From Mercurialis annua (lineage: Eukaryota > Streptophyta > Magnoliopsida > Malpighiales > Euphorbiaceae), in contig NC_065572.1 of the NCBI RefSeq assembly GCF_937616625.2, positions 53,927,653-53,991,652 on the forward strand: a stretch of DNA of 64,000 nucleotides, in the 5' to 3' direction. The notes beneath the pieces were generated by a model. That model did not search any database. It had not been told where the DNA came from and worked only from the letters and a program-made list of their open reading frames with translations. Positions 9,949 to 52,876 of the stretch are shown in pieces (within the stretch, counting starts at the first letter, position 1; each line of letters opens with the position of its first letter). Made by a program: the position numbers and the translations under genes.

Positions 9949-10066
9949 TTTTTTTGATGAATGAAATTTGTATTAACGGCCACGAGAAGTGGCAAAAACA
10001 CCCAACTCAAAAGCTTACGCACAATAAAGGCTACGACTTAAGAGAAGGGGAATAAACAAAGCAAAG

Positions 10067-13705: not shown

Positions 13706-13738
13706 ATTAAAAAAATGTTTACCTCGAGTAGAACAAGA

Positions 13739-15187: not shown

Positions 15188-15209
15188 TCTGATCTCTATT
15201 TGATTTGTC

Positions 15210-15225
15210 ACGTACCATAGACCTT
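15210..15225. repeat. Right 16-bp target-site duplication of the LINE
   Basis: An exact copy of 9933-9948. The RLP reading frame resumes in phase at 15226. Confidence 0.95.
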
Positions 15226-26826: not shown

Positions 26827-28469
26827 GTAGTATTAAGTATAAGTTGCATGATTGGGAGATTATTCATTACTATTCCTGCTCTTGTATGGGAAGAATTTGG
26901 ATAATTTACAAGAAGGATTCTGTCAGTCTTGTTCCTCTTATCATCCATAAGCAGTTCATCCACTGCAGTGTTATTATGGATTTGAAGACTGTTTATTTTT
27001 CTGCTGTCTATGGTTCTTATGTGTCCTAAGAGAGAGTAGAGCTCTGGGATAGATTACTGGCTGTCAGTCAGAGCATTAGTAACTGCTGGATTATCCTTGG
27101 AGACTTCAATACGGTGATGAGCAATTAAGATAGAGTTGGGGGTAATGAGATAGATGATGTTGTTGGGCAAGAGTTTAAGAATTGGAGTTTTGATGCTAAT
27201 CTGGTTGAGCTCAAGTATATAGGTTTAACCTATACCTGGACCAACAATAAGTTAGGAGACAACAGAATATGGAGGAAACTGGACTGGTGTTTCACCAATG
27301 ACCAGTGGATGGAGGACTGGGTGACTTTTACTGTGTGTTTGGAGGGTATGGAGTTTCTGATCACTCTCCAATCATTGTCGATATGAAGACTAATGACTCT
27401 ATCAGGAAAGCTCCCTTCAGGTTCTTTAATGCCTGGTGTGAGCATGAAAATTTTAGTAATATTTTTAAAGATAGTTGGATTAGGCAAGTGGAAGGTTGCC
27501 ATATGTACAAAATATATCAAAAGCTTAAGTTTTTGAAATTTGAGCTCAGGAAGTTGAACAAAGCTTCCTTTAGTAACATGTCTCAGAAGAATGATGTTAT
27601 CAGAAGAACTTGGAGAACCTGTAGAAGGATTTAGTTAAAGATCCTTTTGATGTTATCTTACAAGATGAGGAAAAAGCTTATAATGGGGAATTATTGTCAC
27701 GACCCAAATTCATGGATCGCGACCGGCGCTAGGGAATGGGAGTGGTTGCTCCGAAACCCGTAGCAAGCCTAAGAACCTTTATAAATTTTTCGCGTTTTAA
27801 TACATAAAAAGGTTAGCAACCTCGTTGCGGAAACACTTTAACACCTTTATTAAAAACGCGATCGCAATTCAAGATCATGTATCACATATGATCTGTTTTC
27901 AGAAAATATTGTTAAAACCTTTCTCTCGTTTAACGTAAACACATTTCTGAAAACCGGGTCTTAAGACCCTAGTTGTATTTAAAGAACTAGAGCGCAAACA
28001 TCAATCTCAGTTGACGCACCTGCTCTGTTTCCAATACAATTCTAAAATGCTAAAGACATAAAACCATTGTATCTCTCAAACAACTGGTCATAGCATTTTA
28101 GAAAACACGCAGCTTTTCAAACATATATTATATACAGTAGTTCAATCAGAGTTTATCAAAGTAGTTTGAACTACTGTAAACAGAAAGACAGACTTCTCGT
28201 ACCCAACTACTTGCAGCTCTAGAGGTATGGCTGACATTGACTTCCGGAATTATTGTGGAAGTCAGACCTCGTACTTGATTACCTGAAAGGTAAACATTGG
28301 GGAGGGTCAGAAATATAAATATTTCTGAGTGAGTCTACAATTTTACAATTGAATATTCAAATCGCAAATACATAAACATTTGTATATGTAAAATATTACC
28401 AATTAGTCGATCCAGATGAAACCCTACAAGACAGACTATTGTATGGGTCTCGACCTACACAATATAGGC

Positions 28470-29023
28470 CTTAGACCGTGAACTAAATCACTGCCGTCTA
28501 AGCCGGGTGTCTGGACCGTAACCGTGAAACTTCCATCACAGTACTGCCTGTGACCGTAACCGTTACTGCCGTCTCAGACTGTTAAGTCAGGGTCGTTAGC
28601 ACTTCCAACGCCCAATGACATTAACAGACCTCTATGTCAGACACATGCTCGTATCGAGAAACACTACTGGTGATCACACAGTCCTATTGACAACCAATAG
28701 GAAGCTTGTTCCAATGGATCTTTCATGGTTAAGTTATACTAGTGCGATTTGTGATTTAAAAACATTTTAAATATAAATATTCAAAAGTAAAAATCACAAA
28801 GTAAAACTCACAGAACCGATGTCCCCATTTTAAAAACGTAAGCTCCCATCAAGATCGTCAGTCAAACACGTTGGTGTTTGGCTCGCTAGATCGACCACTC
28901 GTCGGATCTAATTAAAATTCAAATGTCAAAACACATCAGACATTGAATTTCTAACTCTAGTCCTATCGTATAAACGATAGACTCAAATACCATTTCTGTT
29001 TATAGACGACTCTATAAACAGAA
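28470..29023. repeat. Hairpin series in the LTR of element A
   Basis: Successive unrelated stems: CTTAGAC 28470-28476 with GTCTAAG 28496-28502; CCTATTG/CAATAGG 28683-28701; CTATCGT/ACGATAG 28963-28980; 12-nt arms TTCTGTTTATAG 28994-29005 with its complement 29012-29023. Just outside lie GGGTCTTAAGACCC 27956-27969, 13-nt arms 28040-28052/28091-28103, 11-nt arms 28135-28145/28166-28176, and TGACTTCC 28238-28245/GGAAGTCA 28257-28264. The paired stretches are also present in the other LTR. Confidence 0.85.
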
Positions 29024-29328
29024 CATATAAATTAATCTCGAAGTTGAACTTCTCGTTCAAATCGTAATAGCACTCTTGGTATAAACTTATAGTCACTTTT
29101 AACATTAATACACTTGATTAATGTATGGCTTTATTAAAACATCACATCGTTTTAATAAACCAACTATCCTCAAACATTTAGGTTCTTTTAAACCTTTTAA
29201 ACTTTTTAGTTCACATTTTGAACTTCAATCGAATCACGATTGATTTCACGACTTGAAACTGTTTGAATTCGAGTTCAGTGTCGCGTGTGTGGACCCCCGA
29301 AAAAGCCCTACTGTTCAGGTCGGAAGCA

Positions 29329-29473
29329 CTGCACGTTCGTGCAGCGATAGGCTTCACGTTCGTGCAGCCTGCAAGATACACGTTCGTGTATCTTGCTTGC
29401 ACGTTCGTGCAGCAAGATACACGTTCGTGTATCTCGCTGCACGTTCGTGCAGCATCCTGGCTGCACGACGTGC
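29329..29473. repeat. Cluster of CACGTTCGTG-cored palindromes (LTR A, copy 1)
   Basis: Seven units share the centre CACG-TT-CGTG but differ in their outer arms: CTGCACG...CGTGCAG at 29329-29344; core only at 29355-29364; 12-nt arms GCAAGATACACG...complement at 29371-29396; TGCACG...CGTGCA at 29398-29411; GATACACG...CGTGTATC at 29416-29433; GCTGCACG...CGTGCAGC at 29436-29453; and GCACG-A-CGTGC at 29463-29473. The arms change in pairs, so pairing is kept. In element sense the cluster lies a few hundred nt downstream of the presumed TATA box, in the leader. Confidence 0.9.
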
Positions 29474-30803
29474 TGCTCAGGAACGATCCCCGGGCTGTAT
29501 TCCAACGTGCTAACTCGCTTTTCTCGTCCCTAACACTTAAACACAGTCCAAAACATCCAATTCTATAATTAAAACGTTGAATCGATACGCACACGATCGA
29601 TTCAATACGTTTAACGTTTAATATCGAATATATAATAATATATATCGAAATAAACATCGTATACGAGATTAATACCTCTATTACTACTGGATTTGTTGAA
29701 GAATCGGAATCAGAATCGCGAAATCGATCGCGCCGCGCCGGCCTCGGCTTGCTATAGCTAGCAAGCACGTTAAATGGATTTGACGAAATCAAATGAGCTG
29801 CCCCCTCACTTCTATACGTAGGCATTTGGATTGGCTAAAGTACCATTTGGTACTAGCTCAATCATGCACTTTAACTCTGATTTTAATTAGTCGTCCGTAG
29901 TCCAAACGGAGACTAATTCAAAATTTTACGAAACTTTACCCAAAAATCCAATAAAATATAAAACAAATAAAAATATAATTTTTATTTTCATCCGACTTAT
30001 ATTTTATTTTTAATAAATTTCCAAAGATTTATTAGGTCCAAATCAGTCTTGCTTAATTAAAATTACAATGTCCAAATTTCATAAAAATTTGGCGGTAGCT
30101 TCGTCAAATTATTCCGCGAATATTAACACCAAAATTATTCCCTCGGGACTTATAAATTATTTTATTTTAATTTGGACTAACGAATAATATTTAATTAGTT
30201 TATAATTGAAAACTAATTAAAGTAAAAGTTCAGGGACTAAAGTGGACAATTTTCCTTAATTGCCGCCGAGCAACACCGCCTCTTTTTTTTTTTTAATATA
30301 TATATATTTATGTATATATATCTTAATTTATGTTCGTCCATAACTCGTCAAGCTTTCCGAATTTCGACATTTTAATTTCGGGGTTTTGTCCGAAATTTTA
30401 AACTCTCCATTTAGAGTGGTACATTGATATTTTAATTATCAATATATCAATTTATATGATGCTAAAGAGTATTCTCAAATTTATTACTCCCGTTCACACT
30501 CGTTTATTAAAATTTAAATTTCCGATTTAAATTTTAAACTCATATTATTACGATATTCTTTTACGGATTCATATAAATTAAATTTACGTTTAAATTTAAT
30601 TTACGTCCGAATCTATTAAATCACTTCCCGTGATTTAATAATCTTAAATAGTCCAACCTACTATTATCTTTTGACTATTAAATTTAGTCTTTCCGAATAT
30701 TTTTCTTAATATTCGAACCCGCAAAATATTATTTTTGATATTTTAATTACTCCAATTTGACATCGTGACATATTCTAATTACTTAAAATTACGGGGTATT
30801 ATA

Positions 30804-30816
30804 TTCTCCCCTCCTT
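30804..30816 (-). other. Polypurine tract of element A
   Basis: On the minus strand AAGGAGGGGAGAA directly abuts the LTR. This is the plus-strand primer site and fixes the orientation. Confidence 0.85.
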
Positions 30817-33800
30817 ATAAAAATTCGTCTTCGAATTTAAAATCCAAAATCACGTACTCAAATGATTTCATTCAAAGCTTTTATACGTCAATTCTTATGC
30901 TTTACGTAGCATAAGTTTAACTCCAACTATAGGTAGGTTCTAAACCCTATCCTCACTGTAGCCGTGTACAAAGCATGAAATACTTATCACGACACTAGCT
31001 CATCGGTTGCATATTTATGCAATTTCCTTATATGTCACGATTTATCGTGACTTGGAGTTAACGCTCCACATTTCGTTATAACCTAGGTTATATTCTTTAT
31101 CGTATTCCTCTTAACCTCTTAATTACTCTTACTCTTTGGATCAGTGTCTTTCACTGAATGTTTTTCGTCTGTCAACAAAGCGTAAATCCTTACACTGTTC
31201 AATCGTATATACTTAGACGATCTCTATCTCTTTCCACTTTCTTTTGCCTCACTTTTCTTAACACAAAGATTGCCTAATGCTTCTTATAGCATTAGTTAGT
31301 ATTTAAACGATTCTCTTAATCGTATATACTATTTCAATTCCACAATTAGCATACACTTAGGGTTGTGTATAATCTTACTACTGGGTTTACCCCTTTAAGT
31401 CGTTTGTTACTTATGGGCAACAAACGATACTATCTTCTAATCATTGACCTAAAACTTCTTATTAAAACAAAACACTTTATAGTGACACTCAGACTATACA
31501 TGTCTGGTTCACACAATCTATTGTCCTATTTCAGTATTTTATCAATAATACTGAAATCGCAAACTTTTCTTTGCCGCTCTACATCTAGCACATACTCCAA
31601 TTGAGTATTTCTAACTTATACTCTCGCTGAGTTAATCACTTCATATTGGTCTCATACTTAGTTGAGCCAATAGAATTAAGGTTTAAGACCTTATATCTAA
31701 CACTAGATCATACTTTGAATGATCGCTGGCACAATAATGTAGTGTGCATGCACTTCCTGCAAACTTCCACACTTTCACTGTGTTACTCTGATACATAATT
31801 TACTAACTGTTCTCTATACAGTTAGGTTGTAGGATCCTTATCTGATCTTCTTATATCATAATTCTAACTTTTATGACTTTTGATTTGTAGGCAACTTACT
31901 CCTTGTATAATACAAGCAGTGCCTCTTGACTCCTACCATAATATCTCCTATTGTCTTAAATAGTTCGCACGTCGTATTACATCACTAATGTCTTTTGACT
32001 TTCGGTGCAACTATAACTATTGTCAATTCCAAATCATGTATTGACGATTTACCTCGTGCTTTCTCAGCCATCGAGGAACATAATCTATATCTTGATCATG
32101 TTATATCATGACATATCTCTTTTTAACTCTTATAAACATCCTATGAGTAGTGCTAACACTTGCACTACTGTTAATCATCCCCTTTTAAATCTCCACATCC
32201 AATCTTATGTTGATTTGACTAATCAACTTTCCCACTTTCTTGGTTAATTCTTGTTACTAGCGCAAATTTTTTTTTTTTTTAAAATCTTGCAATAACATTC
32301 ACAATATTCTGCGACATCCAAGAAATCACAATTTTTATAGTCGTACTGGTTATTTTCACCTAACAACCACTTGAATCTTTCTCAAATTTACTAGATGTCA
32401 TCTCAGACTTCTAGTGTCTCCTAAAATGTCACTCACATTTAGAGAACCTAATTTAATTCTGACGTTCTCTCAGAATTTACAGCATTGGTCGCACACATTG
32501 TGCGTCTCCTTTCTTTATTAGTCACACAGACTCATTGTCCATTAACACTCTTCCAGAAATAATATAGGAGTAGCTTAACTCCTTGTTCTTATATATCTCA
32601 TAAGAACAGCTGAAGTGTTTGCTCACTCCATGTCCACATCAGAACTAATGGTACTCTTACCACGTTCTGCAAATCCACTTATCATATTTGACTTATGCTA
32701 CCGTCACAGTAGGCTTTAGTTTAACTTCTTTCTTATTCACGTTTTGCAAACGTGTGAGATGTATTTCTATTATACTTCTCTATTCCCTTCGTGCAATACT
32801 CATTTACACACTTATAATTATATCTACTACTGACACCTTCACTGTCAGTGTACAATATCTCAAACTCAATTGAGTTTACATTAGTGACTTTACTTATATC
32901 ATAGATAGGTAAAGTCAAATTTACTGTTGCATGTATCGATAAAACATTTCCATGTTAATCTTAATATCGATACACACCAATGCAACCTATGTTTTCTCTT
33001 CTTATTCTGCCTCTATAGCTCATATAATTCTTTAATATAAGCTCTTAGACTTTATATTTATTTTCTACGTACATCCTCTTTTAAAGTAATAAGCGATTTA
33101 TCTTACATTCGTACGCTTATTCCATCGTAACTCGTTTCAATATGACGTTATTTTCTATATCACTTCCTTATCTTCTCATATAGATTTACTATCGGTTGTG
33201 TCCCTTCACGGGTCAACATTCTTTTTCCTTTTATTATCGCGAAACTCTTATCTTAATATCCGGATATTTCTACTCTTAAAATGTTATTTACCTCAAACTA
33301 TGGCTTACTCAGAATCTTTCATTTATTCTGATGCATAAAATTCTCAAATCTTACATCACTGATCTGACAATCGCTATTTTCCACCTCTTAACTTTATACA
33401 TATATAGTTGTCTTACTCGCAGCAAAGAGTCATCCTCAATGCTCTATAGCCACTACTACCTTTAATTAACTGACTATCAATTTCTCGCTCCGTTTTCAAA
33501 ACATTTCATATTAAAAATAAAACATATGTTTCACACTTTCCACTTTTGGTCGGCCATACTTTACATATTTCTGGCCCGACTTTCAAATACATGTCCTCTA
33601 CATGTATATTCCGCACCAGCCAGCCAAGACTTCACAGTCACTAGGCCCAGTTATCGGAATTTTCACAATTTGAAACTATTGTTTCTCAACAGTTTTCAAA
33701 TTCATTTACATATATATGGAGCTTACATTGATAATCCTAAGTTAATTAAACTCTATAATTTATACTTTTTATCACTTGCACTTTTGGCTCACTGCCAAAA

Positions 33801-34971
33801 TTCACGCAAGTTTCTCATCAATACTTTCAAAAATATTCATCGTCTAGCTTTCCGTTTGATGATCGCAACGGTTAACCTCTAGGCAACCATCTTAGGAATA
33901 TCATATTCCAGAATTAAACTGATCCAACGGTTTAATTAAAAGTTATCAGGGTTTTACTATACCCAATCAGTTTTCAGACATCATCTGAAACTCACTTCAT
34001 CTATACACTATCTCTATCAACTATACTTTGAATCTTGCGTCTTCCACTTACCTTGAGTCTTTCTAAACTCAAATTATACTATTTCTAGTGAGAAATCGCG
34101 TATTTTTAACGCCTTAATCAACTACTTGATCAGTAGGTTCTATCTCTCCTTTCTTACTCCTAGTGTCTCAGGGTACAATGCCCTAGACATCTTATTTAAG
34201 GATATTCTTATCCTTAACTTGTTGTAACTCGGATATGTATTGCAATCCAGATACAAGTTGTAGTTCGTTTAACTACAACTAGCTGTGTACTTCCTAGTCA
34301 CAATTGTATACTCCAGCTTCCACTCTTGTATGCTTTTGTTGCCCCCTCGAGAATCACTTACTGCTTGATCTCGAGTATTTACTTTTGTTAGAGAATTCTG
34401 GTCTAGGTATACTTATAATAAAAACAAATTGGTTTAAAATGGTTCAATCATATTGGGTACCCTTTTTCAAAACAATTTGCTTAAAATTCACTTTTAAAAC
34501 ATCTGCATAGTTGTGCATAGGGTGATGACGTCTCATGTCTAGGCACAATTATGCTTTTAAAATTAAAATAAATAACCATAACAGGTTATATCATTTTTTT
34601 TAAGTTTTCTCCTGACCCTAAACTTTGTAACCAGTAAAATTTCTCCACAACTACTCCACTTCTCTAAATTCGTACTTCTTCTATCAATCGTCTCCTTGTA
34701 CTACTATCGAATGATTTCGAAAGTGTCTTCACTTTATTTCCATGCTTGATATTCAAGCATGGATATCGAGTTGTCTAGACGACTCGCACGCGTATATCGC
34801 AGTCTTATATCCCAAAAGGGAAGGCTGAGAACCTATGAAACATAAGAATATATGTAGGAGACATGACTCGAATCCTATGTGCTGCAGTAGTTCCTATGAG
34901 TACCTATGACATCTACCCCATACTTTATTTCCATGTATCAGCAATGTTTTTAAATTCTCGAGTCCGAGAAC
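30817..34971 (-). repeat. Hairpin-packed non-coding interior of element A
   Basis: There is no recognisable protein. Short inverted repeats with unrelated arm sequences recur every few tens of bases. Checked examples: GTCACGA/TCGTGAC 31034-31051; TATAACCTAGGTTATA 31077-31092; TCAGTG/CACTGA 31141-31157; CTAATGC/GCATTAG 31274-31295; CGTTTGTT/AACAAACG 31401-31426; TTTCAGTATT/AATACTGAAA 31539-31566; CTAACTG/CAGTTAG 31803-31825; CTTGTAT/ATACAAG 31902-31916; AGTAGTGC/GCACTACT 32146-32169; AATTCTGA/TCAGAATT 32455-32477; CGCACA/TGTGCG 32490-32504; GTTCTTA/TAAGAAC 32585-32607; CACGTTT/AAACGTG 32738-32754; ACTGACA/TGTCAGT 32829-32849; AAACTCAATTGAGTTT 32862-32877; TGACTTTAC/GTAAAGTCA 32885-32917. The pattern continues to about 34800 (for example CATGCTTGA-TAT-TCAAGCATG near 34750). 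Confidence 0.85.
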
Positions 34972-34975
34972 TATT

Positions 34976-34987
34976 GCTCTGATACCA
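34976..34987 (-). other. Primer-binding site of element A (tRNA-iMet type)
   Basis: The minus strand reads TGGTATCAGAGC four nt after the LTR end. This is the classic plant sequence complementary to the 3' end of initiator tRNA-Met. Confidence 0.92.
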
Positions 34988-36626
34988 ACTTTGTCACGAC
35001 CCAAATTCATGGATCGCGACCGGCGCTAGGGAATGGGAGTGGTTGCTCCGAAACCCGTAGCAAGCCTAAAAACCTTTATAAATTTTTCGCGTTTTAAAAC
35101 ATAAAAAGGTTAGCAACCTCGTTGCGGAAACACTTTAACACCTTTATTAAAAACGCGATCGCAATTCAAGATCATGTATCACATATGATCTGTTTTCAGA
35201 AAATATTGTTAAAACCTTTCTCTCGTTTAACGTAAACACATTTCTGAAAACTGGGTCTTAAGACCCTGGTTGTATTTAAAGAAACTAGAGCGCAAACATC
35301 AATCTCAGTTGACGCACCTGCTCTGTTTCCAATAGAATTCTAAAATGCTAAAGACATAAAACCAGTGTATCTCTCAAACAACTGGTCATAGCATTTTAGA
35401 AAACACGCAGCTTTTCAAACATATATTATATACAGTAGTTCAATCAGAGTTTATCAAAGTAGTTTGAACTACTGTAAACAGAAAAACAGACTTCTCGTAC
35501 CCAACTACTTGCAGCTCTAGAGGTATGGCTGACATTGACTTCCAGAATTATTGTGGAAGTCAGACCTCGTACTTGATTACCTGAAAGGTAAACATTGGGG
35601 AGGGTCAGAAATATAAATATTTCTGAGTGAGTCTACAATTTTACAATTGAATATTCAAATCGCAAATACATAAACATTTGTATATGTAAAATATTACCAA
35701 TTAGTCGATCCAGATGAAACCCTACAAGACAGACTATTGTATGGGTCTCGACCTACACAATATAGGCCTTAGACCGTGAACTGAATCACTGCCGTCTAAG
35801 CCGGGTGTCTGGACCGTAACCGTGAAACTTCCATCACAGTACTGCCTGTGACCGTAACCGTTACTGCCGTCTCAGACTGTTAAGTCAGGGTCGTTAGCAC
35901 TTCCAACGCCCAATGACATTAACAGACCTCTATGTCAGACACATGCTCGTATCGAGAAACACTACTGGTGATCACACAGCCCTATTGACAACCAATAGGA
36001 AGCTTGTTCCAATGGATCTTTCATGGTTAAGTTATACTAGTGCGATTTGTGATTTAAAAACATTTTAAATGTAAATATTCAAAAGTAAAAATCACAAAGT
36101 AAAACTCACAGAACCGATGCCCCCATTTTAAAAACGTAAGCTCCCATCAAGCTTGTCAGTCAAACACGTTGGTGTTTGGCTCGCTCGATCGACCACTCGT
36201 CGGATCTAATTAAAATTCAAATGTCAAAACACATCAGACATTGAATTTCTAACTCTAGTCCTATCGTATAAACGATAGACTCAAATACCATTTCTGTTTA
36301 TAGACGACTCTATAAACAGAACATATAAATTAATCTCGAAGTTGAACTTCACGTTCAAATCGTAATACCACTCTTGGTATAAACTTATAGTCACTTTTAA
36401 CATTAATACACTTGTTTAATGTATGGCTTTATTAAAACATCACATCGTTTTAATAAACCAACTATCCTCAAACATTTAGGTTCTTTTAAACCTTTTAAAC
36501 TTTTTAGTTCACAATTTGAACTTCAATCGAATCACGATTGATTTCACGACTTGAAACTGTCTGAATTCGAGTTCAGTGTCGCGTGTGTGGACCCCCGAAA
36601 AAGCCCTATTGTTCAGGTCGGAAGCA

Positions 36627-36729
36627 CTGCACGTTCGTGCAGCGATAGGCTTCCGTTTCGTGCAGCCTGCAAGATACACGTCGTGTATCTTGCTGCACGT
36701 TCGTGCAGCATCCTGGCTGCACGACGTGC
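36627..36729. repeat. Palindrome cluster (LTR A, copy 2)
   Basis: Units at 36627-36642 (CTGCACG-TT-CGTGCAG), 36669-36693 (12-nt arms, single T centre), 36692-36709 (GCTGCACG-TT-CGTGCAGC) and 36719-36729 (GCACG-A-CGTGC). Compared with 29329-29473, about three units are missing or eroded and one centre is T instead of TT. The cluster therefore changes in copy number. Confidence 0.9.
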
Positions 36730-37067
36730 TGCTCGGGAACGATCCCCGGGCTGTATTCCGACGTGCTAACTCGCTTTTCTCGTCCCTAACACTTAAACAC
36801 AGTCCAAAACATCCAATTCTATAATTAAAACGTTGAATCGATACGCACACGATCGATTCAATACGTTTAACGTTTAATATCGAATATATAATAATATATA
36901 TCGAAATAAACATCGTATACGAGAATAATTCCTCGATTACTACTGGATTCGTTGAAGAATCAGAATCGGAATCGCGAAATCGATCGCGCCGTGCCGGCCT
37001 CGGCTTGCTATAGCTAGCAAGCACGTCAAATTGATTTGACGCAATCAAATGAGCTGCCCCCTCACTT

Positions 37068-37077
37068 CTATATATAG
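37068..37077 (-). promoter_or_regulatory. Candidate TATA box of element A
   Basis: CTATATATAG about 1 kb into the LTR in element sense. The other LTR has CTATACGTAG here. The palindrome cluster lies 340-440 nt downstream, so it would be transcribed. Confidence 0.5.
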
Positions 37078-39693
37078 GCATTTGGATTGGCTAAAGTACC
37101 GTTTGGTACTAGCTCAATCATGCACTTTAACTCTGATTTTAATTAGTCGGCCGTAGTCCAAACGGAGACTAATTTCAAATTTTACGAAACTTTACCCAAA
37201 AATCCAATAAAATATAAAACGAATAAAAATATCATTTTTATTCGCATCCGACTTATATTTTATTTTTAATAAATCTCCAAAGATTTATTAGGTGCAAATC
37301 AGTCCTATTTAATTAAAATTACTATGTCCAAATTTCATAAAAATTTGGCGGTAGTTTCGTCAAATTATTCCGCGAATATTAACATCAAAATTATTCGCTC
37401 GGAACTTATAAATTATTTTATTTTAATTTGGACTAACGAATAATATTTAATTAGTTTATAATTGAAAACTAATTAAAGTAAAAGTTCAGGGACTAAAGTG
37501 GACAATTTTCCTTAATTGCCGCCAAACGACACCGCCTCTCCTTTTTTTTATTTTTTTATTTTTAATATATATATATATATATATTTATATATATCTTAAT
37601 TTATATTCGTCCATAACTCGTCAAGCTTTCCGAGTTTCGACATTTTAATTTCGGGGTTTTATCCGAAATTTTAAACTCTCCATTTAGAGTGGTACATTGA
37701 TATTTTAATTATCAATATATCAATTTATACGACGCTAAAGAGTATTTTCAAATTTATTACTCCCGTTCACACTCGTTTATTAAAATTTAAATTCCCAATT
37801 TAAATTTTAAACTCATATTATTACGATACTCTTTTACGGATTCATATAAATTAAATTTACGTTTAAATTTAATTTACGTATTCCGAATCTATTAAATCAC
37901 TTCCCATGATTTAATAATCTTATATAGTCAAACCTACTATTATCTTTTGACTATTAAATTTAGTCTTTCCGAACTTTTTTTTAATATTCGAACCCGCAAA
38001 ATATTATTTTTAATATTTTAATTACTCCAATTTGACCTCGTGACATATTCTAATTACTTAAAATTACGGGGTATTACAATTATGGAAGCTTTTTAAATGG
38101 GAAGAGAGTATTAAAAGGCTGAAATTAAGAATGCCCTGGATTAAGATAGGTGATCTTAACACCAAATTTTTCCATAGAAGAATTAGGCAAAGATAGTCTA
38201 GGAAAAGGATTGTTTCCCTTTCTACCCCCAATGGCAATATTACTGATCCCGAGGAGATTAAAAATGAGTTTTTAACTCATTATATGAATTTCATTGGCAC
38301 CTCTAGCCCAAATAGGAAGAGTGTGGACTATTCCAGCTTTAGCAAAGGTTATATCCTCAATGAGGAAGATAGGAGGCTCCTGGATGTTCCCATTACAGAT
38401 GATGATATAAAAGCTGCTCTTTTCTATATCAGGGATGACAAAGCCCCTGAGCCAGATGGCTACTCCAGTGCTTTTTTCAAGAGAAGTTGGAACACTGTTG
38501 GAAAAGATGTCTGTATGGCTGTGAAGGAATTTTTCCAGAATGGGAAGCTTTTTAGTCAGGTAAATTCTACCTCTATTGTCTTGGTCCCTAAAGTGCAGTC
38601 CCCTAACAGCATTAATGACTATAGACCTATAGCCTGTTGTAATGTCTTGTACAAGACTATCTCAAAAATCTTAACTAGTAGACTTAGATCTGTGTTGGAT
38701 TTGCTTATTAGTGATTGCCAGTCAGCCTTTGTTGCAGGGAGAAACATAGCTGATAATGTTCTTATGGCTCATGAGATAATAAGAAACTATCATAGGGGTA
38801 AAGGGAATTCTTGTTCTATGAAAGTTGATATCCAGAAGGCTTATGACTCTTTAGCCTGGGATTGTATTGAAGAGGTCCTCATTGGTTTTAGGTTCCCTAA
38901 CCAGTTTATTGCCTTTATTATGAAATGTATTAGGAGTGCTAAGTTCACTATTATTGTTAATGGGGAAGAGTCTGGTTATTAGGCTGGGGGTAGAGGCCTG
39001 AGACAGGGAGACCCCATTTCTCCCGTGCTGTTTGCCTTGTGCATGGAGTTTTTGTCTAGATCCATTAAGGCTAATACTGGTCATAATTCTGGTTTCATTT
39101 TCTATAAAGGCTGTAAGTCCTTGAATATTAGTCATCTAGCTTTTGCTGATGATCTATTTTTGTTCTCTAATGGAGATCTTAAATCCATTAGCATTCTTAA
39201 ATATACCCTTTCTGATTTCTCTAATATGTCTGGTCTCTATCCTAACCTCAACAAGAGCTTTGTCTACTTTGATGGTGTTAATAATGTGATTAGGAATGAT
39301 ATCCTGTCCATCTGTTAAATATCTTGTTCTGTCCCTCCTTACCACCAGACTTTCTGCTAATAACTGTAATGAGATGATTAGCAAAATCTCATCTAGAGTC
39401 TCCTCCTAGGCTTCCAAAAGTCTCTCTTATGCAGGTAGACTTTAGCTCATTAATGTTGTCATCATGAGCATGCATGTCTATTGGAGTTCCATTTTCATCC
39501 TCCCTAGCTCTGTCATTTCTGTTGTTGAGAGAATTTGCAGAAGGTTCTTATGGAATGGCTCTGATCCTAGTAAGAATAAGAGTCTAGTGAGTTGCAAAGA
39601 TGTCTGCTGTGATAAAAAGTGTGGAGGTTTAGGGATAAAAAGCATTAAGTTGTGGAATATTGCTGCTGTTTCCAAGCAAATTTGGAATGTGGC

Positions 39694-40107
39694 TACCTTA
39701 AAGCCTACCTTATGGGCTAAGTGGGTTATAAAGAACAAGTTGAAAAGAATGAATTTCTGGGGAATTTGCAAACCAGTTGATTGCTCCTGGTCCTGGAGGA
39801 ACCTCCTAAAGATTAGGAATACTATGAAGCCTTATCTTGAGTATAATATGGGGAAAGGGGACAAGTTCTCCTTCTGGCATGACCCCTGGATGAATGTTGT
39901 TACCTTAAAGCCTACCTTATGGGCTAAGTGGGTTATAGAGAACAAGTTGAAAAGAATGAGTTTCTGGGGAATTTGCAAACCAGCTTATTGCTCCCAGTCC
40001 TGGAGGAACCTCTTGAAGATTAGGAATACTGTGAAGCCTTATCTTGAGTATAATCTGGGGAAAGGGGATAGATTCTCCTTCTGGCATGACTCCTAGATGG
40101 ATGGTGT
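39694..40107 (+). repeat. 207-bp (69-codon) tandem duplication in the old LINE ORF2
   Basis: Two diverged, in-frame copies start at TACCTTAAAGCC (39694 and 39901) and include KPTLWAKWVI, LKRM.FWGICKP, and YLEYN.GKGD.FSFWHD. The copies differ at many positions, so the duplication is not recent. It is unusual within an ORF2. Confidence 0.9.
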
Positions 40108-43114: not shown

Positions 43115-43679
43115 TTTCACGTCGTAAGTTAGTCTATTTTCGATCTATTTATATCATCTAGACCGACTCGACTCTGTGATGACATAACTATTTCGGATCG
43201 CACACAATTCACGTTTTACAATTAATCATCAAATATGCAAAGCAAAGCAATCCAACCAATTCAATACAATCGAGAACTGATAGGAGTAAAATACTCCTAT
43301 ATTTAGAGTGCTTTTCCGCATGCTTTCATATGTTTTCACCTCGCTTTTCTATGATAATTTATACCTTATAGCGTGTGTGTGTGTTTCAGGGAATCAAGAG
43401 CATTGTGGAGTGTTTTAAGGCCAAAAGAGTGAAGAATCGTCAAATTCGGAAAAGCGCGAAGTCTTGAAGCAAAGAGACGCTGAAATCACATTTTAGAATC
43501 TGACCCCACTGCACTCGTTGATGAATTTGGACTAGTTCGAGGCTTAAAACGAGTTTGTGTTATTCACAAGAAATAAAGTATACATCCTAAGCTTTCCAGA
43601 GGTTCAAGAACCAACTCATATGGACGTTTCTACATCGAGTTATGAAGTTTTGAAGTTCATGGTTGTGCAGTGGAAAGTG

Positions 43680-43813
43680 TGTCTCGTTTCGAGACAACCA
43701 ACTTAAGATGGTGTCTCGAATCGAGACACAAAGAAATTAGAAGCAGAATTGTGCTTCACTTGTGTCTCGATTCGAGACATACTCCTTTAGTTGATTGTCT
43801 TGAATCGAGACAA
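43680..43813. promoter_or_regulatory. Four TGTCTC inverted-pair palindromes upstream of TATA
   Basis: Units at 43680-43696 (TGTCTCG-TTT-CGAGACA), 43711-43729 (GTGTCTCGAATCGAGACAC), 43763-43779 (TGTCTCGATTCGAGACA) and 43795-43813 (one mismatch here, perfect in the 3' LTR). TGTCTC is the canonical auxin-response element, and each unit is TGTCTC-N5-GAGACA. The cluster ends 115 bp before the TATA box. A regulatory role is inferred. Confidence 0.75.
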
Positions 43814-43927
43814 GAGCAAATAAGGAATCTCAGCACAAAACAAAGGCACATGGCTTGAAGTCCACTTCCCCAATTTGGCCAAGCACCCTTTTTCATAGTT
43901 GTCTCCTATTTCCTCATTTGTAAACAC

Positions 43928-43935
43928 TATATAAA
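43928..43935 (+). promoter_or_regulatory. TATA box of the Athila-type LTR
   Basis: TATATAAA within ACACTATATAAACAC. The identical site in the 3' LTR is at 50928-50935. Confidence 0.75.
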
Positions 43936-45002
43936 CACTTTTATCTCTTTTTAGGTCAAGGGGGGATTTGATAGTAAGTAGTAGTCACCTTCAATTATTG
44001 TAGAACACTTTACTCTCTAGCTTTTAGTTGTAGCAATAGCTTTTAGTTGTAGTTCTTATTGTTCTTACTATTTGTAGTAATATATCATCATAGTTCTTAG
44101 TGTTCTTCAAGTTTATTTCCAGATTTTGCAACTTTGGGAAAGTTATTCAATACAAGTATTAATTTATTTATTGAAGCTTCATTATCTTGTTCATGCTTTT
44201 AATGTTCATTTATTATTCCAAGGTACTTATTCTCTACTCTATGCTTAATCTTTGTTATTGTTTAATTAGTTGTGTTGTGATGATAATTAGTGGCTAGACC
44301 CTTTGTTTAGGGGTTGTTATGATTGCCTTATTTGATTAGCTAGGTGATTAGGGTTAGGGTTTTGGATTAAGATGGTTGTTGTGCTCTTTGGACCTAGTGC
44401 TTAGATTAAAGTGATCTCTTAATCTATGATTTGTGATTTGATTAGGAGGGCGAGAGTTAACTAATTAAATTATACCTAGGGGAGTACAAGCTTGAGACTT
44501 AGGTGCAATAGCGTGACCTAGGGCTAATTTGGTTGTGTAGTTTGCTTATTAATTGGCTTGATTGATTCTATCGAAATCTATGAGCACGAGAGTGGATTAG
44601 ATTTCGGTGTTTTAATCAAGTTCGATTCTCCGCTTTCGGCTCGAGAGAGCGGAAGTGATTCCGTAGAATAGCTTGACTCGGCCTAAGATCCAATCACCTT
44701 GACCCGAACTCCCTAGTTATTACTTTGGCATGACTAGCAACCTCTAAGCGTTTTACCCTAATTGTTTAAATCTCGTGTTAATTAGTTGATTGTTTAGTTA
44801 ATTGTTTTAGTTAAGTAGCGTGTTTAATTAATAGTTTGTTTGTGTGTTCCTTTTAATTGAAACCAAAACCAATCTTTCTATTGCTTTCCGAATTGAATTT
44901 CACAATCAATTTCGTTCACTTTAAACCTCTAGTCCTTGTGGGTTCGACAACCCGGACTTAAAGTCCACTTTATTACGAGTTGGCTTTTTGCTAACAAGTT
45001 TT

Positions 45003-45021
45003 TGGCGTCGTTGCCGGGGAC
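45003..45021 (+). other. Primer-binding site, tRNA-Asp type
   Basis: TGGCGTCGTTGCCGGGGAC, six nt after the LTR. It differs by one base from the TGGCGCCGTTGCCGGGGAC used by many Athila/Calypso-type elements. Confidence 0.85.
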
Positions 45022-45170
45022 TAGGTTGCGTTTAATTGATTGAAAGTATTTTGAAATTTGGTCGAGTTAGCGTCATTTTCTGTTTTTTCTTTTTATTGTT
45101 CATTCTTGTGTTTTCGTGATTTACGCTCGGTTCTCTTGTTTTTGCTTGTGTAGGAAATTGCCCTTTGTGT

Positions 45171-46632
45171 ATGCATAATACACGACGTGCTAATTTTCCA
45201 CTAGAACCTTTCCAAGAGAATCTCGAAAGTTACGAAAGAGGCGTGAGAAGAAGAGCCCGGATTCCCGTAGTTATGAACAACGAGGGGAATGATTATGAGG
45301 ATGAGGAGGGGTTCAACCCTATACAAGAAGGGGGAGGACAACAATACCATCCACCTCCTCCTCCTCTTAAGAATGTAAACCAACAAAGGCATCAAGAACG
45401 CCCAAGGAATGATCGACCCCAAGTGCACCAACAAGTGAAAAATCAACCAAGACAAACTTTGGGCGAGTTCTTCTTGCCGAATGTGGATAATGCCACTTTT
45501 GGATGTTTTGCAATACCGGTTCAAGCGGCAACCTTCGAGATCAAGCCAAGTACAATACAACTCTTGGAGAACCGTTGTGCTTTTTATGGGTTGAAGCACG
45601 AGGATCCGAATGCGCACATAGCCAAGTTCTTGGGTGTACTTAATACGTTCAAGCTTCAGGGGATAACCGCGGATCAAACCAAGTTGAGGATGTTCCCCTT
45701 CTCTTTAAGGGACAAGGCTAGTGTATGGCTTCACTCGCTACCTAATGAGTCAATACACACTTGGAGGGAGTTGGCGCAAGCATTTCTCAACAAATATTTC
45801 CCTCATGGCAAGACCATAAAGTTGACCAAGGATATACTTGAGTTTCTTCAATTCAAAGGGGAGTCACTTCATGAGGCATGGGAGCGGTTCAAGGATCTAC
45901 AAAGGAGCGTCCCACATCATCGGCTCAATAGAGAGCATGTTATTCAAATCTTCTATGATGGGACAACTGTTACTACTAGAGGCACTATTGATGCGGCGTC
46001 GGGGGGGATCGCTAATGCAAAAGACTTATGAAGAAGCTCTTGACTTGGTGGAGAAATTGGCCATAGTTAGTAGTACATGGGGGCCCATAGATAGAAGAGC
46101 GCCATCTACTCAAAAGTCGGTGATGACTCTTGATCAAGTGAAAGAGATGGAGGCCATAAAAGCAACAAATACTTCACTTCAAGCTCAAGTAGATGCTCTT
46201 AAGAGGCAACTGAACCCAAGAAATGCTCTGGTAGCTTATGTTCAAGTGGGATGCGAGTTTTGTGGAGATTTCAACCACTCGGGGGGAGAATGCCTAGTTA
46301 CGGGGCAAGCTTTGAGTGAGCAAGTGAACTACATTAGGGGTCAAAGGCAAGCTAATGATCCTTACTCAAACACCTACAACCCCGGATGGAGGAATCATCC
46401 AAATTTTGGGTGGAGAAGTCAAGAAGGGCAAGGCAATGCTCAAGGGTCTAATCAAGCGGTTTCAAGCTTTCAAGGCAACAATAGGCCTCCACAACAACAA
46501 GGTCACTATGAAGGAAATCAAGGCCAAGGGTACAATTATGGTGGTAGACCTCAACATCCACCCGGTTTTCAACCACAACAGAATGTGGATGATGGAAATG
46601 TGCTTTCCAAGGTGCTAGAGAAATTGGATTAA
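45171..46632 (+). pseudogene. Athila-type gag, frameshifted at a G run
   Basis: Gag forms the particle. From the ATG at 45171 the protein has a basic, Pro-rich N-terminus and then the gag core (FEIKPSTIQLLENRCAFYGL near 45530; KASVWLHSLPNESIHTWREL; FLNKYFPHGKTIKLTKDI). The frame shifts at the seven-G run near 46001-46007, then continues as MQKTYEEALDLVEKLAIVSS. It includes a zinc-knuckle-like C-x2-C...H...C (CEFCGDFNHSGGEC near 46255) and a Gln/Gly/Asn-rich tail, ending at TAA 46630-46632. Both the single-base shift and the stop look recent. Confidence 0.85.
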
Positions 46633-47694
46633 ATGGAGCAAAGAGAGCTTGATGCTAGGCAAAGGGAGAAGAACCAAGCTTCCACGATCCATCATCTAGA
46701 GACTCAAATCTCCCAACTTGCCATTAATCTTCAAGGTAGACCTCTAGGAGGATTGCCGTCCACTACGGAAACTAATCCTAGAGAGCATGTGAAAGCCATC
46801 AAAGTTGTGGAGCTTCGAAGCGGTAGAGTCCTTGATGTTGATCATGACAAGGATTTTGAAAAAGCTAATGGAAAGAGGCCAATGATTGTGGAAGTTGAGC
46901 CTCAAGTGGTAATAGATATTGCAAGCTCTAGTCAAAAGCTACCAAAGTCTTGTGAGGAGGTGGCCATTGATATTGATGTTGAGGAACCATATTTGAGGCC
47001 ACCACCACCACCACCTTTTGTGCCTAAAGTACCATTCCCAAGCCGGTTGAGAAAGGCCCCGGACAATGAAAAGTTTCATAAGTTTCTTGAAATATTCAAG
47101 AAACTTCAAATAAGCATGAGCTTAGGGGATGCCTTGCGAGAGATGCCCCAATATGCTAAGTTCTTGAAAGACATAATTATGAACAAGCGAAGTTGGGAAC
47201 AAGGCGGAACAATTCCTCTAACTGAAAGTTGTAGTTCTATTATCCAAAGCAATCTACCGACCAAGCTACAAGATACAGGGAGTTTCACGATTCCTTGTTT
47301 AATTGGCACTTCTACTTCTCTTAATTGTCTTTGTGATTTAGGTGCAAGTATAAATCTAATGTCGTTGTGTCTTTTCAGGAAAATATGTGGAAACCAACTG
47401 ATAAAACAAACTTCCATGATGCTCCAATTTGCCGACCATTCGCTCAAGAGACCACACGGGGTTGCGGAAGATGTGCTAGTAAAAGTGGGCAAGTTCATCT
47501 TTCCGGTGGACTTTGTTGTACTTGACTATGCAGTCGACAAAGATTGCCCCATGATTCTTGGGCGTCCTTTTTTAAATACGGGGCGAGCATTGGTTGATGT
47601 TAATGCGGGGAAGATAACATTGAGAATGAATGATGAGAGCATGAGTTCGATATCAAGCATGGCAAAAGCAAGTGTGAGGAGGAGAAATGCATGA
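46633..47694 (+). pseudogene. Athila-type gag C-terminus and aspartic protease
   Basis: Continues the gag frame after the TAA. It begins with a coiled-coil-like stretch (HHLETQISQLAINLQGRP, LRSGRVLDVD) and ends in a retropepsin-like domain with the active-site motif CDLGASINLM (47331-47360) and DCPMILGRPFLNTGRALVDV near 47540. The protease core appears complete. It normally leads into RT, but here the frame stops at 47694. Confidence 0.85.
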
Positions 47695-48128
47695 AGATTG
47701 ATACTATTGAGCCCACATTGCATATGCCTATAAAAGAGGTTCCTAAGAAAGAACCCGAAATTGTGTGTGCAAAAATCAAGACAACACCTCATGATAAGCC
47801 ACACAAGGGAAAACCAAGATGTTGGGCATCATGGAAGTTGAAGCTCAACGGGATAGCAACCGCAAGCAAGAGCCAAATGTGCAAGGAAGTTGCCACTCTT
47901 GGCGACTACGTCCAAGTTCGAACCTCTCAAGCGCATTCACATGCGGGGAAGTTGATTTCTAAGTGGAGCGGACTGTTTAAAACACGGCGCAAATTGGATG
48001 ATGATATGATTGAGTTGGAGGGGGCCAATGGAGATGTTTTTAAGGTTCTTGGAGAATGGTGCAAACCATATCCTAGAGTGTTGATCGATGAAAGTCGCGA
48101 GCAAGTCACTCTCTTTGATCCTCCATGA
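47691..48128 (+). pseudogene. Integrase C-terminal tail remnant joined near the protease
   Basis: The first part (KIDTIEPTLHMPIKEVPKKE) is linker. From about 47935 the frame reads HAGKLISKWSGLFKTRRKL, MIELEGANGDVFKVLGEWCK and ends EQVTLFDPP. That order (GKL-S-WSGPF..., then FKVNGQRLKP, then LxDPP) is the conserved end of Athila-type integrases. RT, RNase H and the integrase catalytic core should lie between protease and this tail, and all are absent. The element was therefore made by an internal deletion of pol. Confidence 0.7.
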
Positions 48129-48362
48129 TTTTGAGTATTGCTAGTCGAGCTTACGACTCTAAACAAGCGCGCTTGGGAGGCATTCCCAAGAGGTTCGATT
48201 TTATTGGTTTCTTTATTTTTCTCTTGATTAACATTATTTGCTTTTCAATTTATTTTCTTTTTTGTGTGTTCGGTTTTTGGTTGTGTAGGAGTTTGGCGAA
48301 GAAAATGGAAGGAAAAATCAAGTTTCCCCAAGAAAGGAGAAACAGAGACTTCTGTTTCCCCT

Positions 48363-48492
48363 TGTCTCGAATCGAGACAGGCTACTTAGGAAGCTGTCTC
48401 GATTCGAGACATATAAGGCAGAAATCTCTGCTTCTCTCAATTAGGTGTCTCGAATCGAGACACCTCATTTAAAAGAGTATCTCGATTCGAGA
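48363..48492. repeat. Second palindrome cluster, in the interior 3' region of the Athila-type element
   Basis: Four more copies of the LTR palindrome: 48363-48379, 48395-48411, 48443-48465 and 48480-48492 (core only). The third extends to 11-nt arms (AGGTGTCTCGA and complement). With four per LTR the element holds twelve. They follow the end of coding sequence by about 240 bp. Confidence 0.88.
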
Positions 48493-50277
48493 CAAGCTCT
48501 TTAAAAAGGGGGATTCAAAATTTTCTCATTGATCTTTAAATTATCACTTGGATTGATGACGTGGCGTGATCTAGGACTTTTACAAGACGCATATTAGCCC
48601 TTCAACTCCTTCACCCGAGCCACCCGAGTTCGATTGAACTCTAAGATTTGCTTTCTTCAACTCTAACTCATGCAATTTTCCGTTTATATTTCATTGCAAT
48701 GCGGACATAGCATTGAAATAGTGTGAGGAGGGGGTGAAAAGTGAATGTGTTAGAGTTTCATTTGTGTTATCTTTATTGCTTTCTTATGTTAGGATTGTTT
48801 AGTTTATTTTCTTGCAAGCGTTGCTATTGTGATAATGTGTAGATTGTAGTGTTGCCTAGCACTAATCTCTTGTCTTGAAATCATGTTTATGGAAATGAGA
48901 ATTTATGAAATTTTCGAAAATTTGTCAACAATTAGTATCTCCCGGTTTATGAATGTCTAAATGCTTTTGTCTAGTCTAAGAAATTTATGGTTGATGCTTG
49001 CTTAATGAAATGCAATAGAATTAGACATGTGTAGTTGGCATTTAAGCGGATCTTATAATGGTGTGACTTTTGGGCATGATCGAGGTACTTGATTCGGATT
49101 CATGATATGTGCTTTAAATTGAAATTTTTGTGTCACTTTGAATATGAGCATATTTTGGCATGAATTCATGGGACTTAAGCATGTGAGCATGACACCACTT
49201 TTATTTGAGCATTTTGAGCCTAATTGATTATTGTGAGTGTCATTTTGTTCCGGAATTCCTAGAATTTGCTCGGTGTCCATTCGAGATTACATTGCTGAGT
49301 GATTGATGATTAGATGAGCATGGCATTAGGTGTAACCATTTCTAGAGACCACTTTAAAGCTTACCCTTTCACCTCTAGAAAACACAAGTTGGGCCTAGAC
49401 CTTTGTTGATATTACCATATTCACTCATTAATCCCGTTCTTCCATTTCCACTCTAAATACCCGAACTTGACTTGAGAACTAGTGTGAGGAGGTTAAGGTA
49501 GTAGCTTGAAGAAAATGAAAGAGTTTGAACTTGAACTTAGAAGAGAATTTTATACCTAGAAAGAAAGAAAAGAAAAAAGAAGAAAATTACAAAAATAGAA
49601 AGCAAGAAAGAAAAAAAAAGAAATAAAGGCATTAGAATGTAATAAGAGTTCAAAAAGAGTTCAATTGTGCTAAAATTCCAAACTAACCCAACATGTTGAT
49701 GTTAATGTATTATCTAGTTCCAAGTCAAGTTTTAGCCTAAATATCAACTTCGACCCACCCCGACCCTTGGCCAAGTTACAACCCGTAAAAGTTCATATGA
49801 TAATTGTCGATCACCGAGCTAAGTAGTGGAGTTTAGGACTATGAGCAAACCTATGGGAATTCCGTATTTTGTGTGCTTCATTTCTTTACCTTAAACACTT
49901 AAGTGTGAAAGCGAAATCTTGTGAGAAATATTTGCTAGTGTTTAATGCTTTTGAGTGATTGCCATTGTGTTCATGTTTTGAGATTGACCAAATGCTCGCA
50001 TGTCCCTTAAATGATAGTACTCTCGTGATTGCCGTTGAAAAGATTTGTTTAAATTGTTGACTTGTCTTGAGTGCCATCTTCATATGTCTTATTTATTGCA
50101 TTCCTCATTTGTTTGCATGAATCATGAGTTGTTGACACTAGACAATTGCATTTGCACCTTCATCGATTGGGAGTACTTTTGTTGACAAGTAGTCGGTTTT
50201 GCTAAGTTCTTGATTCCTAGTTATAAGTGAGTTTTGTTCTTGCTTGAGGACAAGAAAGAGATTAGTGTGAGGAGGTT
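48493..50277 (+). other. Non-coding 3' interior of the Athila-type element
   Basis: No env-like ORF is seen. It holds GTGTGAGGAGGGGG near 48722 (a second polypurine tract, as often seen in Athila-type elements), an A/G-rich stretch at 49558-49625 and the final polypurine tract GTGTGAGGAGGTT at 50265-50277 abutting the 3' LTR. Confidence 0.7.
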
Positions 50278-51996: not shown

Positions 51997-52876
51997 AGAA
52001 CAACCAATTTGCATATAGCAATTCAATCATATATAAACAATCCAATCCAATCAATTCACATTTACAATACACTTCATGCGATGCATTCAAATACTAATCA
52101 TATAGTATATCAAATATTATGTTTGTACGATAATACGAGTGAGTAAAATATACCCACTACTTGCTTTTTCCAATCTTTTCACGAATCCTTCGTCTTGGCC
52201 GAACCCCTTAGTCACAATCTTCAAATCCGTAGTGCGTCGATGCCTACTACACAATCACAACCACGTACGTTTAAATCTAATCAATGTATAGCTAATAACT
52301 ATAGACCTAATTCATAGCTTTAGGTTGATACCCTTTTAATTTCAATTCATCCTTTAAGTTTGATATTTCTTTGAATATCAACTTTAACTTTAAGCTTCGA
52401 CGGTTTTATTTAAAACCGATAACGTATTTAATCGTTTTAAATACATACAATCCAAATTTCACTTTTAAAACCTTTATTAAACATATTCTGAATGGCTATA
52501 TTATTCATAACCAACTTATATGTTTAACATTACTTATAACTCTTTTTACGTCAATTTCGCACTTTGCGTCAATTTATCGTTTGCGCTTTAAACTTAAAAC
52601 GCTTAACTTAAAACTCATTTCTTTAATGTTTTAAACATCTTAAAACATCTTAAAACATTCCTATACATCTCTTATTCATCCATTTTTAATTTATAAGACC
52701 TTAATTCATTTATCCGTTTTCGAACGTATTTTACGTTCAAACTATACTAGTTGCGTAACTCGACGTTTCGTCAAAACTTCGCGTCGTTTGATCCTCGGAA
52801 AAGGGTAGGTTCATCCCTTTCCCTTTCACCATCGCCCTACCCTGTTGCACCAAAGATGCTGCTCGCGGCAGCTCAA

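What the first reader, a model, noticed from the sequence alone, without database searches (positions are those of the whole stretch)
30817..34971. A 4.2-kb element interior built almost entirely of consecutive short hairpins with unrelated stems
Between 31,030 and 32,920 I verified 16 inverted repeats by hand (arms of 6-10 nt, loops mostly 0-15 nt); others continue to about 34,800. Arms differ from hairpin to hairpin, so this is not one repeated sequence; what recurs is self-complementarity. Observed: the hairpins. Known: LARDs have non-coding interiors, and those of barley were reported to have conserved predicted RNA structure. Inferred: either the RNA fold is under selection (packaging, dimerisation, protection), or a DNA process such as template switching at quasi-palindromes keeps perfecting inverted repeats.
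Basis: partly seen in the sequence, partly recalled or inferred. Interest (0 to 1): 0.87.

Follow-up and report, generated by a model that had tools for sequence, protein, structure and literature searches.

The report
Non-coding jumping element full of hairpins
In the plant Mercurialis annua, a jumping genetic element that codes for no protein carries dozens of small hairpins whose two arms change less than the rest and change together in evolution, which suggests that the folding of its RNA is being kept while it spreads.

Summary
The hairpins are real. The element is a minus-strand LTR retroelement (27695-38078; ATTAT duplications; LTRs about 3.1 kb; interior 30804-34991) in Mercurialis annua. 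The interior has 60 inverted repeats (arm>=6, loop<=20) against 23.9+-4.9 in shuffles, and 19 against 1.1 with arms>=8; both LTRs are denser. In 20 non-redundant interiors from the same genome, arm positions vary 0.66 times as much as the rest (95% 0.57-0.75); decoy repeats give 1.02-1.05. Pair-restoring double changes number 653 against 131+-17 and stay in excess without CpG/CHG columns. Among near-identical copies, where changes are recent, the arm ratio is 1.05 against 0.59 between lineages (P 0.01 against 0.59), but this rests on one of four clusters, and the LTRs show no such contrast. Best reading: selection on a folded single strand, most likely the sense RNA, during the retrotransposition cycle. 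Loops are purine-rich in the sense strand, but wobble preference is weak (1.24, 0.99-1.65). The use of the fold (packaging, protection) is inferred, and a mobilising partner was not found. It is a LARD-type element with direct evolutionary evidence for a selected hairpin array.

The parts
27690..27694 (.). target-site duplication ATTAT (left)
   Evidence: read; matches 38079-38083
27695..30803 (-). left LTR (3' LTR of the minus-strand element), itself hairpin-dense
   Evidence: 98.5% and 94.7% identical to the right LTR in two blocks
30804..30814 (-). polypurine tract beside the 3' LTR (sense GGAGGGGAGAA)
   Evidence: read directly
30804..34991 (-). non-coding interior with consecutive short hairpins (62 non-overlapping stems of arm>=6, loop<=30; 47 of 62 kept, with at most one mispair and sense G-U allowed, in at least 80% of the other copies)
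31007..31022 (-). hairpin kept in 18 of 19 other copies, with a compensated pair in 8
   Evidence: rows shown
31034..31051 (-). hairpin kept in 19 of 19 other copies, C-G/T-A pair switched in 10 (its variable pair lies in CpG context)
31400..31427 (-). hairpin arm 9, kept in 18 of 18 copies that have it
31528..31557 (-). hairpin arm 11 in this copy, but kept in only 7 of 18 others (a counter-example)
32885..32917 (-). hairpin arm 9 with variable 15-nt loop, kept in 19 of 19
34196..34217 (-). hairpin arm 9, kept in 18 of 18
34739..34763 (-). hairpin arm 11 in this copy, whole stem kept in only 3 of 17 others (the outer pairs are mispaired in most; a counter-example)
34976..34987 (-). primer binding site (sense TGGTATCAGAGC; complementarity to initiator tRNA-Met is recalled, not tested)
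   Evidence: read directly
34992..38078 (-). right LTR (5' LTR of the minus-strand element), hairpin-dense
38079..38083 (.). target-site duplication ATTAT (right)

Best explanation
A large, non-coding LTR retroelement (LARD type) of Mercurialis annua whose transcript, read from the minus strand, folds into an element-wide array of short local hairpins of unrelated sequence with purine-rich loops. Shown by comparison of copies: most hairpins are shared across the family, their arms change less than the rest, and pair-restoring double changes are in excess. Suggested, on thinner data: the constraint acts across rounds of transposition and not on inserted copies. Inferred: the folded sense RNA is what is selected, because a transcript that folds this way is better stabilised, or better taken into virus-like particles and copied by proteins of another element; purine-rich loops and spacers held open between stems are plausible binding places for the Gag of that helper.
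For: Inverted-repeat excess in the interior and both LTRs and in each of 17 of 17 interiors tested (26-46 stems vs 5.4-8.5 in shuffles). In interiors the enrichment is local: 7-22 fold at loops of 3-8 nt, gone above about 50 nt. Arm/rest diversity 0.66 (0.57-0.75) in 20 interiors vs decoys 1.02-1.05; 13 LTRs 0.88 vs decoys 1.09-1.30. Compensated doubles 653 vs 131+-17 in interiors and 172 vs 39+-10 in LTRs after dropping badly aligned stems; without CpG/CHG columns 112 vs 41+-12 (transitions) and 103 vs 9+-4.5 (with transversions) in interiors. Within four near-identical clusters: arms 24/2416, rest 133/14017, ratio 1.05, between lineages 0.59; P 0.0098 for so many arm changes if the ratio were 0.59. 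Interior loops in the sense strand are 69% purine and 7% C, spacers 61% purine. Local sense fold -903.5 vs -688.8+-15.9 kcal/mol in 10 shuffles. No stop-free sense run of 110 aa in 20 of 20 interiors.
Against: The before/after-insertion contrast is thin: 19 of the 24 arm changes come from one cluster; the other three give 5/1855 against 40/10761, ratio 0.73, compatible with either reading. In LTRs there is no contrast at all: 0.88 between the two LTRs of a copy (79/8700 vs 509/49276) and 0.88 between lineages. The strand is not proven. Tree-based G-U tolerance is no better than A-C (ratios 0.80-1.09, all intervals include 1); reference-based 1.24 (0.99-1.65) lies below 1.4-1.8 simulated for sense-RNA selection. 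G-U singles are no better tolerated than transversions (0.98). Interrupted stems in the interior show 19 G-T and 19 A-C. Folding z is more negative on the plus strand, alifold z on the antisense strand (-8.5 vs -5.8) although sense consensus energies are lower in 23 of 28 blocks, and the antisense interior gains more over its shuffles (-758.3 vs -502.7+-12.6). Non-pairing doubles also exceed their null about twofold (289 vs 145; 172 vs 71 without CpG/CHG columns), so part of the double-change excess is alignment or clustered mutation. The steric test was inconclusive, 1.39 (0.85-2.29). Strict counting leaves at most 21 distinct compensated column pairs in the interior. Two of the longest stems are kept in few copies (7 of 18 and 3 of 17). 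No transcript, probing or Gag data; one species only.
Confidence: 0.68

Rival explanations
1. A mutational ratchet: template switching at quasi-palindromes, in reverse transcription or in DNA replication, keeps copying one arm onto the other, so hairpins appear and stay perfect without any use.
For: Perfect Watson-Crick stems, compensated doubles, and little or no wobble preference are what arm-to-arm copying would leave. If it happened only during reverse transcription it would also spare inserted copies.
Against: Copying between arms should not slow total change in arms (inference), yet diversity there is 0.66 of the rest. Doubles are few beside the missing singles: 23 pair-restoring doubles on internal branches and four young tips while singles fall to 0.43-0.47 of expectation. 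Lineage-specific stems are rare, 0-4 per copy. Recent changes in interiors show no arm effect, with the one-cluster caveat.
Confidence: 0.12
2. The hairpins are kept for their DNA: as single-stranded cDNA in the particle or as cruciforms in the genome.
For: Weak wobble preference and a lower fold z on the plus strand; no before/after contrast in LTRs.
Against: Cruciform use in the genome would protect arms after insertion, which is not seen in interiors (one-cluster caveat). An antisense cDNA should prefer the opposite wobble, but reference-based ratios lean to sense (1.16-1.29). Loops are purine-rich in the sense strand only.
Confidence: 0.12
3. Same selected RNA fold, other use: the stems protect the transcript from nucleases, slicing or siRNA-guided silencing rather than serving packaging.
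For: The array covers interior and LTRs, more than a packaging signal should need (inference); loops and spacers avoid C and are purine-rich, which should lower chance pairing with other RNAs.
Against: No small-RNA or decay data; short hairpins are weak barriers singly (median -7.0 kcal/mol in this copy).
Confidence: 0.25
4. Palindromic binding sites for dimeric DNA proteins.
For: Some stems have no loop.
Against: Arms show no common sequence by eye, loop lengths vary with the interior optimum at 3-8 nt, and recent changes show no protection of arms.
Confidence: 0.02

Closest known systems
LARDs (large retrotransposon derivatives; Sukkula of barley and relatives)
   Same: Paired LTRs, PBS, PPT, target duplication, a large non-coding interior, many copies; [quoted passage not shown]
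   Different: Here the structure is an array of short local hairpins with no long-range excess in the interior, running through the LTRs and supported by arm constraint and covariation. The primary LARD paper was not held, so its structure claim was not compared in detail.
Cassandra TRIM elements
   Same: Non-coding LTR elements with a conserved predicted fold (PMC7215508, passages).
   Different: Their fold pairs the two LTRs into one super-hairpin; here the excess of pairing found is local.
Ty1 and Ty3 genomic RNAs of yeast
   Same: LTR-element RNA with stable folded regions interspersed with dynamic ones, A-rich (PMC11381356, abstract and section on common features read).
   Different: Those RNAs are coding, and stable highly structured regions make up to 30% there; here the interior codes for nothing and hairpins run through interior and LTRs.
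Packaging signals with looped purines (MMTV)
   Same: Stem-loops that present single-stranded purines to Gag (PMC8096270, abstract and section list).
   Different: Two critical sites there (a purine loop and the PBS), against dozens of hairpins with purine-rich loops here; no Gag binding tested.
Genome-scale ordered RNA structure (GORS) of some RNA viruses (recalled term; only a search listing seen)
   Same: Folding energy below shuffles over the whole molecule.
   Different: Known to me from coding viral genomes; here a non-coding retroelement.

Membership tests
LARD | two LTRs with target-site duplication | tested here: met
   LTRs 27695-30803 and 34992-38078; ATTAT on both sides
LARD | primer binding site and polypurine tract at the interior's ends | tested here: met
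   sense TGGTATCAGAGC four bases inside the 5' LTR; GGAGGGGAGAA beside the 3' LTR; tRNA match recalled
LARD | large interior without coding capacity | tested here: met
   about 3.8-5.0 kb in copies whose match reaches both ends; no stop-free sense run of 110 aa in 20 of 20 interiors; 5 of 5 interior ORFs scanned have no Pfam match above its cut-off
LARD | conserved multi-copy family | tested here: met
   40 long matches at 77-100% identity, 40 of 245 first-look candidates having been scored
LARD | mobilised in trans by an autonomous element | not tested
   the genome search meant to look for a partner did not complete (first, last)
LARD | conserved RNA structure | tested here: met
   evolutionary evidence only, strand not proven
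TRIM | short element with almost no interior | tested here: not met
   10.4 kb element with 4.2 kb interior
retrozyme | hammerhead ribozymes in the LTRs | tested here: not met
   no hammerhead among the four Rfam matches up to E 1 in 27000-39000
genome-scale ordered RNA structure | folding energy below shuffles throughout the molecule | tested here: met
   mean z of interior and both LTRs, (43-79% of windows below -2 on the minus strand); 20 of 28 interior alignment blocks at z below -3, sense
genome-scale ordered RNA structure | structure present in the RNA itself | not testable with these tools
   needs chemical probing

The most novel reading that the evidence does not exclude
A retroelement that gave up all coding and turned its whole RNA into a selected scaffold of about a hundred hairpins presenting purine loops: an RNA-only parasite that competes for another element's Gag and reverse transcriptase by structure spread over its full length rather than by one packaging signal.
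Probability: 0.28. Interest if true: 0.85.

Novelty: new variant of a known kind. Interest (0 to 1): 0.6.

Why it matters
Whether non-coding LTR elements are passive wrecks or functional RNAs is open, and the claim of conserved structure has rested, as far as I saw, on predicted folds. Here copies in one genome give direct evidence that paired arms are constrained and covary, and they offer a contrast (arms across lineages against arms in fresh insertions) that can be made decisive with more copies and run on any LARD family. That makes the question what a non-coding retroelement must keep in order to spread directly testable.

Tried and rejected
Plain folding z-scores cannot name the strand (plus slightly lower; antisense alifold z lower; antisense gain larger), so I did not use them for that. 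A first wobble comparison looked sense-biased; it is confounded by mutation bias. The corrected tests gave 0.80-1.09 on the tree and 1.16-1.29 with reference-defined stems (per-reference medians 1.07-1.60), so I report it as weak. The LTR count of 226 G-T against 21 A-C in interrupted stems was not used because few independent sites may be behind it. The steric test was inconclusive. CpG/CHG hot spots could have made false compensation; removing them left a smaller excess. Rfam gave no family above its cut-off in 27-39 kb. Pfam hits to ORFs are below their cut-offs.
Full report
What it is. The window lies in a 451-Mb assembly from Mercurialis annua: the ORF at 8248-9954 matches an NCBI M. annua receptor-like protein at 100%. 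The stretch in question belongs to an LTR retroelement on the minus strand. LTRs are at 27695-30803 and 34992-38078 (98.5% identical over 1723 columns, 94.7% over 1410), the duplication ATTAT flanks it, the primer binding site lies at 34976-34987 and the polypurine tract at 30804-30814. There is no stop-free sense run of 110 aa in any of 20 interiors examined, and five of five interior ORFs scanned have no Pfam match above its cut-off.

The observation. Inverted repeats with arm>=6 and loop<=20 number 60 against 23.9+-4.9 in 20 shuffles, 34 against 5.8 at arm>=7 and 19 against 1.1 at arm>=8. The right and left LTRs hold 91 and 85 against 22.2 and 20.4. Folding z: interior -2.0 to -2.3, LTRs -2.8 to -3.7, 178 windows elsewhere about -0.5. 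In interiors the enrichment by loop length is 7 to 22 fold at 3-8 nt (18 fold at loop 0), 3 to 4 fold at 11-20 nt and about 1 above 50 nt, so the excess is local. Arms of >=7 nt cover 13% of this interior and a local fold pairs 58%, so 'almost entirely' overstates it.

Family. A search with 597 bases of the interior returned 40 long matches at 77-100%, 40 of 245 first-look candidates having been scored. I fetched stretches around 33 copies. Of 26 interiors plus the window's, 23 were longer than 2.5 kb and were aligned (L010, L026, L027 and L034 were dropped as too short); dropping six near-identical rows left 17. Seven more copies gave 30 rows, 20 of them non-redundant below 97% identity. Each of the 17 interiors tested has 26-46 stems against 5.4-8.5 in shuffles, and on average 80-89% of other copies keep a given copy's stems with at most one mispair, G-U allowed. 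Of the window's 62 stems (arm>=6, loop<=30), 47 are kept in at least 80% of other copies; two of the longest, at 31528 and 34739, are not (7 of 18 and 3 of 17).

Constraint and covariation. Stems were defined in one copy and scored in the others. Arm positions have 0.63 times the diversity of the rest with 17 copies and 0.66 (0.57-0.75) with 20; decoy repeats built with non-complementary rules give 1.02-1.06. In 13 LTRs the ratio is 0.88 against 1.09-1.30 (rows without a found LTR start, L024, L025, L028, and five near-identical rows were left out). Doubles that restore a Watson-Crick pair: 1194 against 403+-38 with all cells. After dropping stem-copy comparisons that differ at more than a quarter of columns (11644 of 14630 kept): 653 against 131+-17, in 55 distinct column pairs of about 40 stems; LTRs 172 against 39+-10 (3246 of 4428 kept). 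Doubles that do not pair are also raised (289 against 145+-19 in interiors, 114 against 46+-11 in LTRs), so part of the excess is not about pairing. Because stems hold CpG sites that can mutate on both strands, I removed CpG and CHG columns: transition doubles 112 against 41+-12, pairing doubles with transversions 103 against 9+-4.5, non-pairing ones 172 against 71+-14, at most 21 distinct pairs. These counts are not independent events, since copies share ancestry; the null redraws partners among real columns and so keeps that ancestry.

When the constraint acts. In four clusters of near-identical copies, differences are recent. There arm columns are polymorphic at 24 of 2416 and others at 133 of 14017, ratio 1.05 (Fisher p 0.82), while between lineages the same kind of arm definition gives 0.59. 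If the ratio after insertion were also 0.59, 24 or more arm changes would have probability 0.0098; but 19 of the 24 come from one cluster (L028, L035-L038), and the other three alone (5/1855 against 40/10761, ratio 0.73) fit either value. LTR-LTR differences in 15 copies, each counted in both directions, give 79 of 8700 in arms and 509 of 49276 elsewhere, ratio 0.88, with 3 pair-restoring doubles; this equals the between-lineage ratio of LTRs and says nothing either way. So decay of arms after insertion is suggested for interiors, not established.

Which strand and which molecule. Sense loops in interiors are 69% purine with 7% C, spacers 61%, arms 50%; in LTRs 61% and 53%. If the sense RNA were selected, single changes to G-U should be better tolerated than to A-C. 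With correction for mutation bias the ratio is 0.80-1.09 on the tree, all intervals including 1, 1.26 (1.01-1.55) for interior and LTRs together and 1.24 (0.99-1.65) for 20 interiors. A simulation of selection on sense folding energy gave 1.4-1.8. The data lean to sense and do not exclude a symmetric cause. The reverse preference, expected by symmetry for antisense only (not simulated), lies outside the reference-based intervals (lower bounds 0.86-1.01) but not outside all tree-based ones (0.50-0.81). Pairs that could not form across a loop of under 3 nt looked less constrained, but not significantly (1.39, 0.85-2.29; LTRs 1.26, 0.85-1.93). Consensus folding energy is lower in sense in 23 of 28 blocks, while z is lower in antisense; the interior gains 215 kcal/mol over shuffles in sense and 256 in antisense.

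Mechanism. Shown: shared, constrained, covarying hairpins. Suggested: constraint across transposition cycles rather than on inserted DNA. Inferred: the RNA is the selected molecule, and the use is packaging or protection of a transcript that must borrow another element's proteins. Looped purines are bound by Gag in MMTV (PMC8096270, abstract), and Ty1, Ty3 and HIV-1 RNAs have stable folded regions interspersed with dynamic ones (PMC11381356, section read). A partner element was not found because the search meant for it did not complete (first, last).

Compared with the known. The element meets the LARD features I could test. Conserved structure for LARDs and TRIMs is stated in PMC7215508 (passages), so the kind is known. 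What I did not find in ten searches is a hairpin array through LTRs and interior with arm constraint and covariation; most papers there were seen as listings only, and the primary LARD paper was not held.

Noticed in passing
52001-53950: Another hairpin-rich stretch (7 repeats vs 1.6 in the first kilobase), by eye an LTR in minus orientation ending near 53950; hairpin density may be common to long LTRs in this genome.
   Followed up: partly
39001-40000, 48001-49000, 56001-57000, 61001-63000: Further kilobases with inverted-repeat z of 3.4 to 4.5, identity not determined.
   Followed up: no
L028, L035-L038 (all on contig C3): Five copies 98-99% alike that share deletions in the interior, so a shortened derivative has multiplied.
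   Followed up: partly
L015/L016 and L021/L022: Neighbouring copies 7.6-7.7 kb apart that look like LTR-interior-LTR-interior-LTR arrays.
   Followed up: no
29331-29473: LTR segment that is an imperfect inverted repeat of itself (78.7%), with sub-threshold microRNA-like Rfam matches.
   Followed up: partly
29211-29825 (-): 204-aa open frame in the left LTR (190 aa in the right one); no Pfam match above cut-off, and no stop-free run as long in the other 12 LTRs examined.
   Followed up: yes
43278-51998: LTR element with 99.5% identical LTRs and long ORFs at 45165-47694, probably a young coding insertion.
   Followed up: no
8248-16371: Receptor-like gene apparently split by 5 kb holding two long minus-strand ORFs that look like a LINE (1212 and 490 aa; by eye); the matching M. 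annua protein is 948 aa and may read across it.
   Followed up: partly
family alignment, sense strand: Unpaired sense positions are purine-rich and C-poor, a strong strand skew without coding.
   Followed up: partly
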